Shown: piece after piece, positions 31,141-38,244 of the stretch
Position numbering within the stretch: position 1 is the stretch's first letter
How the letters are laid out: every line of letters begins with the position of its first letter
DNA from: Pseudomonadota bacterium
GTDB lineage: Bacteria > Pseudomonadota > Gammaproteobacteria > Burkholderiales > JAKAFK01
Reading direction: 5' to 3'
NCBI GenBank assembly: GCA_021817985.1
Contig: JAKAFK010000003.1
Location: 71,136-113,285 of the forward strand
DNA length: 42,150 nucleotides
Notes under the pieces: generated by a model
Databases searched by the model: none
Told to the model about the DNA's origin: nothing
The model's input: the letters and a program-made list of their open reading frames with translations, nothing else
Program-made: the position numbers and the translations under genes

Positions 31141-32037
31141 ATGAGTATTCCACCCAACGACACGTGGCACATCGTGCTGCCTGACAAGGCCCAAGTCTTC
31201 CGGCGGCGCGCGATGCGTTTCGAGGTTCTCCTGACCCACCGCCCGGACTGGGCCTATCTGGCATTCGCCGAGCAGATTGCCAGCGCGCAGCAGCACAGCA
31301 TGACGGACCATCCGAGCCCGCGCCTGCCTGACGAGCGATTATTGCGTCTGCGCAATGCCCATGCCGTCCCCCCGCTGTGTGCCCACAGCGGGCGACAAGA
31401 GAACGGTTGGCACGAAGCACTCGCCGTCATTGGATCGCGGGTCTCGCATGCCACGACAGGGAAAACGCGAACGGCCATCGAACGTCTGCTCGACACCCCC
31501 GGCGCGCAGATCGAGTCCTTCGCCCGCGGCGTACTGTGTGGCTATTACGGTGGCGTTGATTCGGAGGCGCGCGTCCTTCTCGCCGCCGCGCTGCAGGTTC
31601 ACTGGGTCGCCATGGCGGCAGAGGCCGCCGCCCGCGCGGCCTTCGGCCCCACCGAGGTCCCATCCTTGTGCCCGGTGTGCGGCTCTCCGCCCGTGGCCAC
31701 CGTGCTGCGCCGACACGGCGGCACACTGGACCGCTATCTCCATTGCTCGCTGTGCGCGACGGAATGGTCCATGGCGGTCGATCGCTGCACAAGCTGCGGC
31801 TCGCGAGGATGGCTACACTATTTCCGCGCCGGCGGCGCGCACTCGGCCGTCCGGGCGGAAGCTTGCGACGAATGCGGGAGCTACTTGAAGATCTTGAATC
31901 TGGACCACGCCCCGACGCTCGATCCCACGGCCGACGATCTTTTCACCCTGGAACTCGACGCCGCGGCTCAGGATGCCGGCTTCGCCCGCAGCGGCCCGAA
32001 TCTCTTGTTCGTTCCCGGCATCGAGCCCAGCGTATAA
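31141..32037 (+). CDS. fdhE: Formate dehydrogenase accessory protein FdhE
   Basis: FdhE is an iron-binding rubredoxin-like chaperone needed for assembly of respiratory formate dehydrogenases. The product is 298 aa (E. coli 309). The C-terminal half carries four CXXC pairs: C177/C180, C202/C205, C216/C219 and C242/C245, in CPVCGSPP, CSLCATEW, CTSCGSRGW and CDECGSYLKI. The LCPVCGSPP element is diagnostic. No formate dehydrogenase subunit lies in the window. mobA upstream serves the same kind of enzyme. A small ORF overlaps the start as TGATG, and fdhE itself has no clear ribosome site. Confidence 0.92.
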   Translation: MSIPPNDTWHIVLPDKAQVFRRRAMRFEVLLTHRPDWAYLAFAEQIASAQQHSMTDHPSPRLPDERLLRLRNAHAVPPLCAHSGRQENGWHEALAVIGSRVSHATTGKTRTAIERLLDTPGAQIESFARGVLCGYYGGVDSEARVLLAAALQVHWVAMAAEAAARAAFGPTEVPSLCPVCGSPPVATVLRRHGGTLDRYLHCSLCATEWSMAVDRCTSCGSRGWLHYFRAGGAHSAVRAEACDECGSYLKILNLDHAPTLDPTADDLFTLELDAAAQDAGFARSGPNLLFVPGIEPSV

Positions 32038-34175: not shown

Positions 34176-34916
34176 TCAGTTCTTGCTGGAGAGGTAAAGG
34201 GCAATGTCCTGGATTTGGGCATTGGTCAGCGAGGACGTCACGGCCTGCATCAAAGGATCCATGCGCTGACCGTTGTGCGCCCGATAGCGCGACAAGGACA
34301 GCACCAGGTATTCCGGATGCTGCCCCGCCAGGCGTGGAATGCGCTCATCTCCCATCGCGGTTGTCCGATGGCATTGCACGCAGCGCTGGCTGAACAGAGA
34401 GGCTCCCGTCTGCCACTGCGCGGTATGTGCCACCACGGCGGGACGCACCGCCTGGCTGGCGAAGTACAGGCTGATGTTGATCTTGTCGGTATCACTGAGC
34501 ACTTTCACGAGGCCTTGCATGAACGCGCTGCTCTGCCGGCGCCCATCGGCGAATTTCTGGATCTGCGTCAGCAAATAGAAAGCATTCTGCCCTGCCAGGG
34601 TAGGCACCTCGCGAAAGGGACTATTGCCATCGACACCGTGGCAATTGGCGCAAAAGAAAGTTGCCTTGCGTCCCGCCGCAATGCTGCTCTGAAGCGCGTT
34701 CTTGTTTTTCCGGATGGCTTTGACCCGGGCCTCGAGCGCCGCGATATGCGGATCGACCGCGTTGATGCTCGCTTCCTCGGCGTTGACCGCGAGTCCTCCC
34801 GCATTGGCCGCCATCGCCATAGGCAGCGGGGTCATACACAACCAAACCCCCAGGCCCGCCCAGCCCAGTGCCCGCATGGCTCGGCCTCGCGAACCGACGC
34901 CCCAATCTTTCGTCAT
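34176..34916 (-). CDS. Di-haem c-type cytochrome (cytochrome c4-like)
   Basis: The ATG at 34916 follows GGAGG and gives 246 aa. A signal peptide with hydrophobic core LGWAGLGVWLCMTPLPMAMA ends near residue 36, so the protein is periplasmic. Two haem sites are present, CANCH (89-93) and CVQCH (179-183). Each is followed by the c4-type pattern with a candidate distal Met: LAGQ, then SAFMQGLVKVLSDTDKINIS in the first half, and LAGQHPEYLVL, then MDPLMQAVTSSLTNAQIQDI in the second. c4 cytochromes carry electrons to terminal oxidases in sulfur and iron oxidisers. No oxidase is adjacent. A helical insert of about 40 residues precedes the first haem. Confidence 0.92.
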   Translation of the reverse strand: MTKDWGVGSRGRAMRALGWAGLGVWLCMTPLPMAMAANAGGLAVNAEEASINAVDPHIAALEARVKAIRKNKNALQSSIAAGRKATFFCANCHGVDGNSPFREVPTLAGQNAFYLLTQIQKFADGRRQSSAFMQGLVKVLSDTDKINISLYFASQAVRPAVVAHTAQWQTGASLFSQRCVQCHRTTAMGDERIPRLAGQHPEYLVLSLSRYRAHNGQRMDPLMQAVTSSLTNAQIQDIALYLSSKN

Positions 34917-35180
34917 CTCCCCCTCCCTCACGTGCCTTTCTCAAACCGACGGCGTGCGATGCGCCGGGCCCATGCCAGTCCAAGGATCGCGTCTCGGAGA
35001 CACAGGAACCCGCACAGTCCAAACGATGCTTTCGTTTCGGACCGCCGTCGGGCGTTGCCCCGCGCACCCCCTTTTTCGAGCGTTGCGTCCGCGGCGATGG
35101 CGCTCATTCTACAATAAGACCCACATCTCTGAATATGCATATGGTATCGTGCGGTCCCGCCGCCTTGCACGTGCGTTCGA
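34917..35180. other. Upstream region of the cytochrome gene
   Basis: This holds a minus-strand -10-like TAGAAT (near 35107-35112) without a clear -35, a perfect palindrome ATATGCATAT (35133-35142), and a 58-codon minus-strand frame ending 11 nt before the cytochrome start that lacks a ribosome site. I do not call a gene here. Confidence 0.35.
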
Positions 35181-36053
35181 TCAGGCCGGTCCGTCCGCGC
35201 CCGCCTCGCCGGTCTCGGCGCGGGCGAGCTGCCGCAGACCTTCGACCGCTTGCGCAAGAAACGTGTCCGCACGCGTCAGGGGAAACACCACATAAGCGGG
35301 AAGCCGGAATGCGGGCGCGTCTTTGACGCGGTGCAGGCGGCCTGCCTGCAACGCCTCCCGTGCCATGCGCAACGGAAAGTAGCCAGAGCCTCCGCTCTCG
35401 GTCAGGTGCTGCAGGCCCAGCCACCCAATGTTGGCATAGAGCGCCGGCGGCGGATGGTCGGGGAAGTAGACCGAGAACTGATGGAAGAACTCCGGCCCCC
35501 AATCCACATGAACATACCCGGGATCCGGCCATGGGCGATCCGGAGCGGTCGACACAAGCACCAAGGTTTCATCGAACAAGCGCTCGACGGCCAGCCCGGG
35601 ACGCGCCTCGGGCGTATACATGACGCCGACGTCGATGGTGTTGTGGATCAGCCCCTGCATGATGTCCGCCTCAAAGCCGATTTCCAGCCGCAGCGAAATG
35701 GTCGGCGCGCTCGTCCGCATCCAGGCCACCCAACGCGGCAGAAAGCCTTCCCAAAGCGCGATGCGTCCGGAGAGCGTCAACCCGGCGGAATACCCCTCGG
35801 GCAAGCCCACGTCTTGGCGTGCGGTCTCCACCGTTCGCACCAGCGTCTGGGCATGCCGCAGAAACCGCCGGCCTGCCGCGGTCAACTCCGCTCCATGCTT
35901 GCCCCGCGTGAAAAGCTTGGCGCCGAGCTGATTCTCCAGCGTCTGGATGCGCGCGCTCACCGTGGATTGCGTGACATGGAGCCGCTGCGCGGCGGCCAGA
36001 AAATTGCCGGCGGTAACCACATTGAGAAAGGTACGGGCTTGTTCGGTATCCAT
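35181..36053 (-). CDS. LysR-family transcriptional regulator
   Basis: The product is 290 aa. The N-terminal helix-turn-helix (about 1-65) reads MDTEQARTFLNVVTAGNF, AAAQRLHVTQSTVSARIQTL and ENQLGAKLFTRGKHGAELT. The LysR substrate-binding domain covers about 90-280. The effector is unknown. It is divergent from the dsrC-like gene, with 178 bp between start codons. A perfect inverted repeat immediately upstream of its own start is a probable autoregulatory site. LysR regulators usually control the divergent gene, so the DsrC-like protein and HPP protein are the likely targets (inference). Confidence 0.95.
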   Translation of the reverse strand: MDTEQARTFLNVVTAGNFLAAAQRLHVTQSTVSARIQTLENQLGAKLFTRGKHGAELTAAGRRFLRHAQTLVRTVETARQDVGLPEGYSAGLTLSGRIALWEGFLPRWVAWMRTSAPTISLRLEIGFEADIMQGLIHNTIDVGVMYTPEARPGLAVERLFDETLVLVSTAPDRPWPDPGYVHVDWGPEFFHQFSVYFPDHPPPALYANIGWLGLQHLTESGGSGYFPLRMAREALQAGRLHRVKDAPAFRLPAYVVFPLTRADTFLAQAVEGLRQLARAETGEAGADGPA

Positions 36054-36054
36054 T

Positions 36055-36071
36055 TATCGGATTCTCCGATA
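36055..36071. promoter_or_regulatory. Probable LysR operator (perfect inverted repeat)
   Basis: TATCGGATTCTCCGATA is a perfect 7-3-7 inverted repeat containing ATC-N9-GAT and T-N11-A, the classic LysR box. It ends 2 nt upstream of the lysR ATG and about 160 bp upstream of the divergent dsrC-like gene. Confidence 0.7.
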
Positions 36072-36231
36072 GAAAACACCAAAATATTCCGTTTTTCTTC
36101 TAGACGCAATCCCCCTAAACTTTGTCCTGTGTATTGCCGTCGCCTGGTGATGCGTCGCCTGAAGCGCGAAATGCTCGGTGCCGTATCGCGGGAAGACGCT
36201 AAGGCGCGCAGTTCAATGAAGGAGGACAAAC

Positions 36232-36555
36232 ATGGAAGCAGAAGCCTTGCAACTCAATACCGACGAAGAGGGCTATCTGATCGAGCCCGAGTCATGGACG
36301 GAGGCTGTGGCCGCGGAGCTTGCGCAGCAGGAGGGGATCACGCTCACGCCTGAGCATTGGGACGCGATCCGCTTCATGCGGGAGTACTACGACGAACACC
36401 AAAAGGCCCCCGATGCCCGGTTCGTGATCAAGTATCTGACGGAAACCAGCGGTGCCGATCGCAACCAGCTCTCCCGTCTGTTCCCCTACGGCTATGTGAA
36501 GCAGGCGTGCAAGATCGCAGGCATGAAGCGGCCGCGCGCCTGGAGTTCGGGCTAG
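36232..36555 (+). CDS. DsrC/TusE-like sulfur relay protein lacking the C-terminal Cys
   Basis: The ATG follows GGAGGA and gives 107 aa, the normal size. DsrC-family landmarks are LNTDEEGYLIEPESWTEAVA, LTPEHWDAIRFMREYYDEH and the C-terminal arm LFPYGYVKQACKIAGMKRPR. In true DsrC, two cysteines 11 residues apart form the redox pair, and TusE keeps only the penultimate one. Here the inner Cys (C93) is present, but the position 11 residues later is Trp (W104, in RPRAWSSG). It is therefore a paralogue of the DsrC family rather than canonical DsrC or TusE. A role in cytoplasmic sulfur transfer or its regulation is inference. No dsrAB, tusBCD or hdr genes are adjacent. Confidence 0.9.
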   Translation: MEAEALQLNTDEEGYLIEPESWTEAVAAELAQQEGITLTPEHWDAIRFMREYYDEHQKAPDARFVIKYLTETSGADRNQLSRLFPYGYVKQACKIAGMKRPRAWSSG

Positions 36556-36642
36556 CGGGCGCGGCCCTCACGGGCCGCACCCTCCGCGCGGTTCGCCGCC
36601 TCGCTTTCCCCAGCGCCCCCTCGACAACTCAAGAAAGAATTT

Positions 36643-37347
36643 ATGGAACGGGCCCTCAAGCTTTTTCTCACGCCAACCGTCGTTCACCTTCCCACCCACA
36701 GTCATCTCGAAAAATGGATCTCCGGCCTCGGCGGATTCCTGGGCATCGCGTTGACCGTGATGCTCAGCCGCTTCCTGCTCGGCGACCATGTCGCAGTGCA
36801 GATCGTCGCCTCGATGGGCGCGAGCGCCGTGCTGCTCTATGCGGTTCCCCACAGCGCGTTTTCCAGCCCGTGGGCCGTGCTCGGCGGGCATTGCGTGTCC
36901 GCCCTGGTCGGCGTGATCCTCGCCCGGCTTGTTCCGGACCCGCTGCTGGCGACCCCGCTGGCGGTGGGGCTCGCGATCACCGCCCAGTACTATCTGCGCT
37001 GCATCCATCCGCCTGGCGGCGCCACTGCGTTCTTCGCCGTCATGGGGGGACCGGCCGTGCGCGCGCTAGGGTTCAACTATGTGTTCTTCCCCGTCATGCT
37101 GAACGCCCTCATCATCCTGAGCGTGGCGGTCATCTTCAACAAGCTGTTGCGGGCAAGACAGGACGCCCACGTGCGCGCGCTGGAATCGCATCTGCAAGTT
37201 CCGGAGAAATGCTTCATCCGTCACAGCGATCTCGTGTACGCGCTTTCCGAGATCCAGTCCTATATTGACGTGGGCGAAGAGGATCTCATGCATATTTACA
37301 AACTTGCCGTCCAGCACGCCTTCCCGTCCACCGCCGTGCAGCACTGA
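36643..37347 (+). CDS. HPP family membrane protein
   Basis: The product is 234 aa with about four transmembrane helices in residues 25-165. It contains the family signature CIHPPGGATAFFAV, plus GASAVLLYAVPHSAFSSPW and FNYVFFPVMLNALIILSV. HPP proteins are integral membrane proteins, and some cyanobacterial and plant members transport nitrite. The function in this lineage is unknown. A cytosolic C-terminal tail of about 60 residues follows. It starts 87 nt after the dsrC-like gene and may share its transcript and LysR control. Confidence 0.9.
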   Translation: MERALKLFLTPTVVHLPTHSHLEKWISGLGGFLGIALTVMLSRFLLGDHVAVQIVASMGASAVLLYAVPHSAFSSPWAVLGGHCVSALVGVILARLVPDPLLATPLAVGLAITAQYYLRCIHPPGGATAFFAVMGGPAVRALGFNYVFFPVMLNALIILSVAVIFNKLLRARQDAHVRALESHLQVPEKCFIRHSDLVYALSEIQSYIDVGEEDLMHIYKLAVQHAFPSTAVQH

Positions 37348-37450
37348 GGCCTCTCAGGGGATCCGGCTGACCCTCATGGGCGGTCGGCACGGAGCGAAAC
37401 TGGCATAGGATAAAAGAAAGGCCATCGACGGGGATGCCGGACTCTGAACC

Positions 37451-37495
37451 CCGTTCGATGGGTCCATACGAACGGACGACGAGCATACCCTCGTC
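37451..37495 (+). promoter_or_regulatory. Tandem hairpins in the leader of the endonuclease V gene
   Basis: CCGTTCG (37451-37457) pairs with CGAACGG (37469-37475), and immediately afterwards GACGAG (37478-37483) pairs with CTCGTC (37490-37495). The two perfect stems end a few nt before the AAGGAAG ribosome site of the gene at 37513, so they could affect its translation or mRNA stability. Confidence 0.4.
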
Positions 37496-37512
37496 TCAAG
37501 GAAGACGCGTCC

Positions 37513-38244
37513 ATGCCGTGGATCCTCGACCAGCCCCGCTCCGTGCAAGAAGCCCAGGCGATCCAAGAGCGCCTGCGCGAGCAAGTCGTACGGGAGGACC
37601 GGCTGGGCACGGTACGGCATCTATGCGGCCTCGACATCGGACTGCTCAAGGCCAATACCGTCGCGCGCGCGGCGGCGGCAGTATTCACCTTTCCCGATCT
37701 CCAACCGGTCGAATGCGCGATCGCCTGCACGCCGGTGACCTTCCCGTACGTGCCGGGGCTCCTCTCCTTCCGGGAGGCGCCGGCCGCGCTTGCTGCCCTG
37801 GCCAAGCTCGCGCGCAAACCGGATCTACTCCTGTACGACGGCCAGGGCTTGGCCCACCCACGCCGCTTCGGCATCGCCTGCCACGTCGGCCTGGCCGCGG
37901 ACATTCCGGCCATCGGCGTCGCCAAGACCCGGCTCATCGGGACCCATGCGGAGCCCCCTGACACGCGCGGCGCATGGACCCCGCTCCTCGACGGAGACGA
38001 AACCATCGGCGCCGTGCTGCGCACCCGTCCGGGAACCCAGCCCATCTACGTATCCATCGGCCACCGGATCAGCCTGGACACTGCGGTACGCTATGTCATG
38101 GCGTGCGTCACCCGCTACCGACTGCCCGAGACGACCCGGTGGTCGCATCGGCTGGCCTCCGGTCAAGGGGAGGCGGCGGCCGCCGGCTGCACCGACGATT
38201 CCGATGGAGCGGCGGCCACGCGCGAGCCCCGGGCGGAGCCCTAG
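37513..38244 (+). CDS. nfi: Endonuclease V (deoxyinosine 3' endonuclease)
   Basis: Endonuclease V nicks DNA one nucleotide 3' of deoxyinosine, starting repair of deaminated adenine. The ATG follows AAGGAAG and gives 243 aa, with the core enzyme in residues about 10-220. Catalytic carboxylates align with E. coli D35, E89 and D110: D41 in GLDIG, E88 in PYVPGLLSFREAP and D109 in YDGQGLAHPRRFG. SIGHRISL near the end is also conserved. The last 30 residues are Ala/Gly-rich and probably disordered. The MBL-fold gene starts 16 nt downstream. Confidence 0.94.
   Translation: MPWILDQPRSVQEAQAIQERLREQVVREDRLGTVRHLCGLDIGLLKANTVARAAAAVFTFPDLQPVECAIACTPVTFPYVPGLLSFREAPAALAALAKLARKPDLLLYDGQGLAHPRRFGIACHVGLAADIPAIGVAKTRLIGTHAEPPDTRGAWTPLLDGDETIGAVLRTRPGTQPIYVSIGHRISLDTAVRYVMACVTRYRLPETTRWSHRLASGQGEAAAAGCTDDSDGAAATREPRAEP

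What the first reader, a model, noticed from the sequence alone, without database searches (positions are those of the whole stretch)
36232..36555. DsrC paralogue with the inner cysteine but Trp at the C-terminal cysteine position
Canonical DsrC needs both cysteines and TusE needs the penultimate one. This protein has C93 but RPRAWSSG instead of a C-terminal Cys. It cannot form the usual intramolecular disulfide or trisulfide, so it probably does something else: single-thiol sulfur carriage, regulation, or partner binding.
Basis: partly seen in the sequence, partly recalled or inferred. Interest (0 to 1): 0.6.

Follow-up and report, generated by a model that had tools for sequence, protein, structure and literature searches.

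The report
Tryptophan-tailed DsrC paralogue of sulfur oxidizers
This small protein belongs to a well-conserved side branch of the bacterial sulfur-carrier protein DsrC in which the sulfur-binding tip cysteine is replaced by tryptophan; in the genomes sampled it is found almost only in bacteria that also have the Dsr sulfur enzymes, and in about a third of cases near nitrite or nitric-oxide genes, so it is more likely a regulator or guard of that machinery than a carrier.

Summary
ORF 36232-36555 (+, 107 aa) is a DsrC-family protein that keeps the inner cysteine (C93) and has Trp exactly where canonical DsrC has its penultimate, sulfur-binding Cys. It is no sequencing slip: the 80 best homologues all keep C93 and the RPRxWS(T/S)G tail, and the type is one clade even with the tail cut off.

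Distribution follows dsrA: in the order sample 52 of 52 W-type genomes have it (0 of 257 dsrA-less genomes have W); in the class sample 40 of 42 (2 of 250).

In A. vinosum DsrC, loss of the tip Cys abolishes sulfur binding and the inner Cys does not bind (PMC3397948), so sulfur carriage is unlikely. A divergent LysR (elsewhere MarR) regulator with a conserved operator adjoins part of the loci; HPP and NnrS genes cluster nearby more than expected, although W does not follow these genes between genomes.

Best reading: a non-carrier, conditionally expressed DsrC paralogue that docks on the Dsr machinery or a partner and tunes or protects it, perhaps under nitrite/NO. The partner is not shown. New variant of a known kind.

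The parts
36232..36555 (+). CDS of the W-type DsrC paralogue (107 aa); Cys93 codon 36508-36510, Trp104 codon 36541-36543, stop 36553-36555
36219..36225 (+). Shine-Dalgarno AAGGAGG, six bases before the ATG
   Evidence: sequence shown directly
35181..36053 (-). divergently transcribed LysR-type regulator (290 aa, no cysteine in its sequence), the likely regulator of this promoter
   Evidence: Pfam HTH_1 and LysR_substrate; best NCBIfam model HdfR but far below its cut-off, 120.7 against 240 bits; a homologue lies divergent in the same place in 21 loci, the window included
36055..36096 (.). putative LysR operator TATCG-N7-CGATA-N8-CAAAA followed by a second AT-rich half site; the only exact match in the 3.97-Mb genome
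   Evidence: similar architecture in the 21 LysR-type intergenic regions; own-genome scan
36643..37347 (+). HPP-family membrane protein, same strand, 87 bases after the dsrC stop; a family with reported nitrite transport
   Evidence: PF04982 E 7.6e-47; PMC7438415 passage citing Maeda 2014

Best explanation
The protein is a member of a monophyletic 'W-type' DsrC paralogue family found almost entirely in bacteria that have dsrA. SHOWN: DsrC fold and body; inner Cys and Trp tip kept; presence tied to dsrA; a divergent LysR or MarR neighbour with shared operator-like words in part of the lineages; physical clustering with HPP and NnrS genes in part of the loci. INFERRED: the Dsr pathway of these genomes runs in the sulfur-oxidizing direction. 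INFERRED: the protein is not a sulfur carrier, because the only residue shown to bind sulfur in A. vinosum DsrC is replaced by Trp. Instead it is made under particular conditions and uses the DsrC body and Trp-tipped flexible arm to dock on a DsrC partner (most likely DsrAB, which normally receives the DsrC arm), with Cys93 as a single redox, persulfide or nitrosation switch or as the site of a mixed disulfide. By docking it would hold, compete for or protect the sulfur-oxidizing machinery, perhaps when nitrite or NO is present. The docking partner and the switch are unproven.
For: The 80 best homologues all keep tail and C93. One clade with SH-aLRT 100 (57 W rows), still one clade at 95 with everything from about the inner Cys onward removed (30 W rows including the window). 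W nested in dsrA+ genomes: order 52/52 against 0/257; class 40/42 against 2/250. A. vinosum DsrC: sulfur and sulfite bind only Cys111, Cys100 is irrelevant, and C111S loses sulfur binding and binds DsrEFH much more weakly (PMC3397948 passages). In the 45-row alignment A2, taken from the window and the best-80 set, D61, Y88, C93, M98, R102, W104, S105 and G107 are invariant; the canonical rows have A, P, C, L, T, C, I/V and no residue there. Regulators: divergent LysR/MarR within 700 bases upstream in 25/80 and 15/60 loci; top 7-mer in 18 of 21 LysR regions against a shuffled maximum of 5, and in 16 of 19 MarR regions against 7; the extended LysR operator has one exact site in this genome. Clustering: HPP within 5 kb in 9 of 35 W+ genomes that have HPP (0.15 expected), NnrS in 6 of 38 (0.16), narG within 10 kb in 3 of 18 (0.14) but in 0 of 18 within 5 kb. 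An NsrR-like Rrf2 gene lies just before, and a hemerythrin gene just after, one W gene outside the class. Nitrite can bind the haem of dissimilatory sulfite reductase (PMC8840924 passage).
Against: No direct evidence of binding to DsrAB or any partner. Among the 73 dsrA+ genomes of the order, W is not associated with narG (W+ 18/52, W- 11/21), NnrS (38/52, 18/21) or HPP (35/52, 14/21), and no narG was found in the window genome. Most W loci show no gene of the nitrite/NO set within 6 kb (51 of 80 and 40 of 60; some contigs end earlier), and 5 of the 20 positive loci in the second set rest on partial NarG-like matches of 28-48% identity. Many dsrA+ genomes lack an exact W tail (21/73, 79/119), so W is dispensable for the pathway. 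dsrAB is near in only 3 of 60 and 0 of 80 loci. Five of 47 genomes behind W loci show no clear dsrA.
Confidence: 0.38

Rival explanations
1. Single-thiol sulfur carrier: Cys93 itself takes and passes a persulfide, as TusE does with its tip Cys.
For: C93 is kept in the 80 best homologues and is invariant in alignment A2; the family as a whole is a sulfur-relay family (TIGR03342).
Against: In A. vinosum DsrC the equivalent Cys100 binds no sulfur and the C111S mutant binds none (PMC3397948). The residue that does is Trp here. dsrAB is near in only 3 of 60 and 0 of 80 loci; dsrEFH and tus genes were not searched for around the loci.
Confidence: 0.15
2. Transcriptional co-regulator: the DsrC helical body binds DNA or the paired LysR/MarR protein and adjusts sulfur or nitrogen-oxide genes; C93 is the sensor.
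For: Divergent regulators and operator-like words; weak Foldseek resemblance of the model to winged-helix regulators such as Zur (E 0.36); DNA binding by A. vinosum DsrC is recalled, not looked up.
Against: Resemblance to regulators is far below significance; divergent regulators commonly just control their neighbour; no DNA-contact residues were tested.
Confidence: 0.17
3. Partner of the nitrate/NO enzymes themselves (for instance assembly or repair of Nar or metal centres) rather than of Dsr.
For: nar-FAD oxidoreductase-W-NnrS order in Thiobacillus and similar loci; a second DsrC paralogue class (tail TKGEH) lies about 3 kb from narG in G021 and G045.
Against: Genome-level presence does not follow narG, NnrS or HPP but follows dsrA nearly perfectly; no narG was found in this genome.
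Confidence: 0.15
4. Decaying DsrC copy without function.
For: It has lost the residue essential for the known function.
Against: Purifying selection (17 synonymous against 3 non-synonymous codon differences to G001); tail found across the order, the class and in three genomes beyond it.
Confidence: 0.02

Closest known systems
DsrC of reverse-Dsr sulfur oxidizers (A. vinosum DsrC, PDB 1YX3)
   Same: Fold (Foldseek E 1.5e-7, 43% identity), arm sequence FPYG..KQACKIAG, inner Cys
   Different: Tip Cys replaced by Trp, tail two residues longer, GP to GY and GL to GM in the arm; this gene is not in a dsr operon
TusE (E. coli)
   Same: Family; a single arm Cys
   Different: TusE keeps the tip Cys and lacks the inner one, the reverse of this protein; the TusE equivalog cut-off is missed (89.1 against 191 bits)
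DsrC-family proteins lacking one or both cysteines (phage dsrC/tusE-like AMGs, PMC8190135; SUP05 viral dsrC_1, PMC4164917)
   Same: Incomplete cysteine set; SUP05 dsrC_1 also lacks the second C-terminal Cys, and its authors suggest loss or change of function
   Different: Of 141 phage DsrCs only 1 had the first Cys motif alone, and most were taken as TusE-like; the viral-contig scan confirmed no relative of the W type
Extra DsrC genes of A. vinosum (Alvin_0028, 0345, 0732, 1508) and Thiocapsa bogorovii
   Same: Additional chromosomal DsrC-family genes in organisms with dsrAB, role unestablished (PMC3368242, PMC11267869, PMC10892978; passages)
   Different: Their tails are not given in those passages, so whether any is W-type is untested here

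Membership tests
TusE/DsrC/DsvC family (PF04358, TIGR03342) | family profile above curated cut-off | tested here: met
   115.1 against 24.9 bits; 102.3 against 53.5 bits
TusE/DsrC/DsvC family (PF04358, TIGR03342) | DsrC fold | tested here: met
   AF2 model pLDDT 84.3; the eight Foldseek hits with E <= 0.001 are all DsrC-family chains
canonical DsrC | inner Cys (CysB) | tested here: met
   C93, aligned with Cys in 14 of 14 canonical rows
canonical DsrC | penultimate sulfur-binding Cys (CysA) | tested here: not met
   Trp104 in that column
canonical DsrC | persulfide/trisulfide chemistry with DsrEFH and DsrAB | not testable with these tools
   needs protein; the published C111S mutant predicts none
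TusE | tip Cys without inner Cys | tested here: not met
   the reverse pattern
TusE | TusE equivalog NF008562 cut-off 191 bits | tested here: not met
   89.1 bits; E. coli TusE itself 243.7
W-type DsrC clade (defined here) | C-x3-GM-x2-PR-x-W-S-x-G tail and one clade | tested here: met
W-type DsrC clade (defined here) | dsrA in the same genome | tested here: met
   G000 dsrA at C46:2546-3793, 518.8 bits
RspA-type DsrC-like proteins (name recalled, no call) | published definition | not tested
   searched for RspA with DsrC and listed no relevant paper

The most novel reading that the evidence does not exclude
The W-type protein is a molecular cork for DsrAB: it docks like DsrC, and the tryptophan at the arm's tip fills the siroheme channel where DsrC's sulfur-bearing cysteine normally goes. 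It would reversibly shut and shield the enzyme from nitrite and NO while the cell switches between sulfur and nitrogen-oxide chemistry, with Cys93 as the release switch. More broadly, DsrC paralogues would form a set of adaptors whose conserved C-terminal tails (TGC, AWSTG, GKGGY, TKGEH, FGSV) each specify a different partner.
Probability: 0.13. Interest if true: 0.75.

Novelty: new variant of a known kind. Interest (0 to 1): 0.5.

Why it matters
DsrC is the textbook sulfur carrier of dissimilatory sulfur metabolism, and extra 'TusE/DsrC/DsvC' genes are annotated as sulfur relay proteins. A conserved subfamily that has lost the sulfur-binding residue yet occurs almost only with dsrA suggests that this annotation is misleading for many genes. 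It also offers a testable, still unproven, link between sulfur oxidation and nitrite/NO handling.

Tried and rejected
Sequencing or frameshift artefact: rejected by the congeneric copy and 80 homologues. Pseudogene: rejected by codon differences. Phage-borne AMG: the viral-contig scan matched 26 stretches but confirmed no relative. Denitrification as the genome-level determinant: tested with narG, NnrS and HPP in the 73 dsrA+ order genomes and not supported; only physical clustering remains. Sigma-70 promoter and terminator scan of 35900-37600: none found. FNR-type box search in the window: none printed. The careful tree did not finish, so quick trees are used. The window row was missing from the tree (its duplicate stood under another locus id and was not picked); it is. 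In one search the window's own sequence stands twice among the 136 W rows, and those rows were classed by a motif holding C, GM, PR, W and S/T, so their invariance at those positions is by construction; searches are the fairer evidence. Paper searches (open-licence PMC papers only) listed no paper that, by title, start of abstract or the passages I read, treats a Trp-tailed DsrC; most listed papers were not opened, so absence from print is not shown. Rows dropped: four genomes (G145, G166, G172, G035) and four (G730, G384, G728, G513) whose only match does not read like DsrC; L052 (same protein and same 6208-base contig length as G001's); two partial DsrC-like fragments before both trees; four long-branch rows and every second W row.

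Full report
OBSERVATION. The reading frame 36232-36555 (+) exists as described: ATG start, TAG stop, 107 aa, AAGGAGG six bases before the ATG. It is a DsrC-family protein (PF04358 E 2.5e-33; TIGR03342 102.3 bits against a cut-off of 53.5). The C-terminus is QACKIAGMKRPRAWSSG. In an alignment of 136 W-type rows (the window's sequence twice), 14 canonical and 19 other DsrC-family rows, C93 falls on the inner Cys and W104 on the tip Cys, each Cys in 14 of 14 canonical rows. The tail runs two residues past the canonical end.

NOT AN ERROR. The congeneric genome G001 has the same protein (97%), with 17 synonymous and 3 non-synonymous codon differences. A scan of genome contigs with a nine-sequence profile found 519 relatives, of which the best 80 were kept. 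All 80 have the Cys and the Trp, with 14 variants of the 16-residue tail. The scan seeds were FPYGY(V/P)(K/A)Q and a (D/E)HW motif, so neither Cys nor Trp was a seed; but the ranking by similarity favours near kin, and the other 439 relatives were not seen.

ONE CLADE. Among 170 distinct DsrC-family sequences in the loci held at that point, 135 were W-type (window included), 14 had both Cys, 6 only the tip Cys (including E. coli TusE), 3 only the inner Cys and 12 none (the W count is inflated by the way loci were gathered). In a tree of 90 rows the 57 W rows are one side of a branch with SH-aLRT 100 (quick method, window row absent). With everything from about the inner Cys onward removed, four long-branch rows left out and the window included, the 30 W rows are still one clade at 95 (59 rows). 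The Trp tail thus marks a separate paralogue with its own body, not a repeated loss. In the 45-row alignment A2, D61, Y88, M98, R102, W104, S105 and G107 are invariant; the canonical rows have Ala, Pro, Leu, Thr, Cys, Ile/Val and nothing there.

DISTRIBUTION. A DNA pattern for C-x3-GM-x2-PR-x-W was run on 330 genomes of the order: 56 match, 4 of them only by a stretch that does not read like DsrC, leaving 52; the reversed control pattern matched none of the listed genomes. dsrA (TIGR02064) in the same 330: 70 over the cut-off and 3 split or partial (G015, G207, G307); the same search over 14 control genomes gave no match over the cut-off. All 52 W genomes are among these 73; none of the 257 others has W. 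In 369 genomes of the class, 46 match, 4 not DsrC-like, leaving 42; the reversed control matched 1. dsrA there: 112 over the cut-off plus 7 partial. 40 of 42 W genomes have dsrA; G692 and G644, both in many contigs, have no clear dsrA; 248 genomes have neither. Fisher p values are 7e-44 and 6e-20, but genomes are related, so these only show the size of the effect. The converse does not hold: 21 of 73 and 79 of 119 dsrA+ genomes lack an exact W tail. In a phylum sample 7 of 269 genomes match (reversed control 1): two are the window genome and G043, three lie outside the class and read as W-type (L210, L211, L213), and two are chance. Whether those three have dsrA was not tested. That the Dsr pathway runs in the oxidizing direction in these genomes is inferred from the families and from dsrE/dsrH-like genes beside dsrAB in this genome (read by eye), not tested.

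CONTROL OF THE GENE. The gene is divergent from a LysR-type regulator (35181-36053, -). Of 80 loci (window plus L053-L131) 25, and of 60 drawn loci (44 from the class sample, 16 from the order sample) 15, have a homologous LysR or MarR-type gene on the opposite strand within 700 bases upstream (the sets overlap in part). The 21 LysR-type intergenic regions share TATCG-N7-CGATA with small variations, usually followed by an A-rich stretch and ATCGTTTG: the top 7-mer is in 18 of 21, against a shuffled maximum of 5. The 19 MarR-type regions share TGTGATATAT/ATATCA words: 16 of 19 against 7. The shuffle control was crude (blocks of two bases) and related sequences share words by descent, although LysR identities to the window's fall to 51%. 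In this genome the extended operator has one exact match, its own promoter; six more carry two mismatches, one of them the overlapping reverse strand of the same site, and the reversed control pattern gave 3 matches. So the LysR looks dedicated to this promoter and probably to the downstream HPP gene as well (inferred).

NEIGHBOURS. Recurrent arrangements: LysR-W-HPP (window, L053, L085, L097, L116, L118); nar genes and a Pyr_redox_2 FAD protein before W with NnrS after it (Thiobacillus L090, L098, L100; also L103); MarR-W (Sulfuricella, Hydrogenophilus, Nitrosomonadales and others); a membrane protein without Pfam match, DUF2249 and hemerythrin (L061, L068, L095); DUF2844-DUF3443 (Ferrovaceae- or Ferrovum-titled and similar MAGs); MFS/efflux genes (SKS-series and other MAGs). 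A gene of the HPP/NnrS/NnrS-like/Nar/hemerythrin/DUF2249 set lies within 6 kb in 29 of 80 and 20 of 60 loci, 5 of the 20 only through partial NarG-like matches of 28-48% identity. Against genome-wide copy numbers, HPP lies within 5 kb in 9 of 35 W+ genomes that have HPP (0.15 expected), NnrS in 6 of 38 (0.16), and narG in 0 of 18 within 5 kb but 3 of 18 within 10 kb (0.14) (a flat 3-Mb genome was assumed). HPP proteins are reported nitrite transporters (PMC7438415, passage citing Maeda 2014). One W gene outside the class stands between an Rrf2 regulator whose best model is NsrR (87.9 bits, below the 182 cut-off) and a hemerythrin gene that begins just after its stop if its ATG at L210:1550 is used. 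dsrAB genes are within 1.5 kb in 3 of 60 loci (L163, L177, L201) and in none of the 80.

AGAINST A SIMPLE NITRATE STORY. Within the 73 dsrA+ order genomes, narG is in 18 of 52 W+ and 11 of 21 W-, NnrS in 38 of 52 and 18 of 21, HPP in 35 of 52 and 14 of 21 (matches over the cut-offs). W presence therefore follows dsrA, not denitrification genes; no narG was found in the window genome. The nitrite/NO link rests on gene order alone, and most loci do not show it.

STRUCTURE. The AF2 model (45-row alignment A2; pLDDT 84.3) has low confidence in residues 1-4 and 105-107. Best PDB matches are A. vinosum DsrC 1YX3 (E 1.5e-7) and other DsrC chains, including DsrC bound to DsrAB (2V4J, E 7e-5). No complex could be modelled here.

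MECHANISM. In A. vinosum DsrC, sulfur and sulfite bind only Cys111 (tip); Cys100 (inner) is irrelevant for binding; C111S loses sulfur and binds DsrEFH much more weakly (PMC3397948 passages). The W-type is a natural counterpart of that mutant, so a role as sulfur carrier is unlikely. Yet the inner Cys is kept, so a thiol is probably still needed: a switch, a mixed disulfide or a structural contact. Restriction to dsrA genomes makes a Dsr component the likeliest partner. In canonical DsrC the flexible arm brings the terminal Cys to the DsrAB catalytic site (PMC3397948 passage; that it lies next to the siroheme in a channel is recalled), and nitrite can bind the haem of dissimilatory sulfite reductase (PMC8840924 passage). 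Together these make a docked, Trp-tipped DsrC that competes with or shields DsrAB a coherent but unproven proposal.

COMPARISON. [quoted passage not shown]). [quoted passage not shown] the W-type is an exception within the same family. A. vinosum and Thiocapsa bogorovii are reported to have several extra DsrC-family genes (PMC3368242, PMC11267869, PMC10892978; passages); whether these include W-types was not tested. A published class named RspA is recalled from memory and was not found in the searches.

VERDICT. New variant of a known kind, interest 0.5: a real, widespread DsrC subfamily, with the mechanism open.

Noticed in passing
G000:C113:26056-26754 (L001/L008, 8051-8770 in L008): A fused tandem DsrC-DsrC protein (239 aa): the first half without arm cysteines, the second half ending in GCID; two neighbouring DsrC matches share one 272-aa frame in G029:C1:389750-390442.
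   Followed up: partly
L009 5176-5493 (G000:C46) and L033, L035, L037, L040, L050, L051: A DsrC-like class ending in GKGGY, mostly without arm cysteines, encoded on the opposite strand 1.1-1.4 kb from dsrA in seven genomes (G000, G001, G021, G025, G029, G037, G043); it may be a regulator of the dsr operon.
   Followed up: partly
L031 (G045:C105:960-1256) and L039 (G021:C1:757317-757616): A cysteine-less DsrC-like class ending in TKGEH sits about 3 kb from narG in both genomes.
   Followed up: no
L006 (G000:C2:6649-6909), L038, L053, L054: Another DsrC-like class with long tails ending in FGSV and a variable inner Cys.
   Followed up: no
L055, L056, L058, L059, L072: Ferrovaceae- or Ferrovum-titled and similar MAGs, a group known for iron oxidation (recalled), carry dsrA over the cut-off as well as the W-type gene; the Ferrovum-titled genome of L057 (G064) shows no dsrA.
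   Followed up: no
window 31141-32037 (+) and 34176-34931 (-): An FdhE formate dehydrogenase accessory protein and a cytochrome c with two Cytochrom_C stretches lie upstream of the LysR gene.
   Followed up: no
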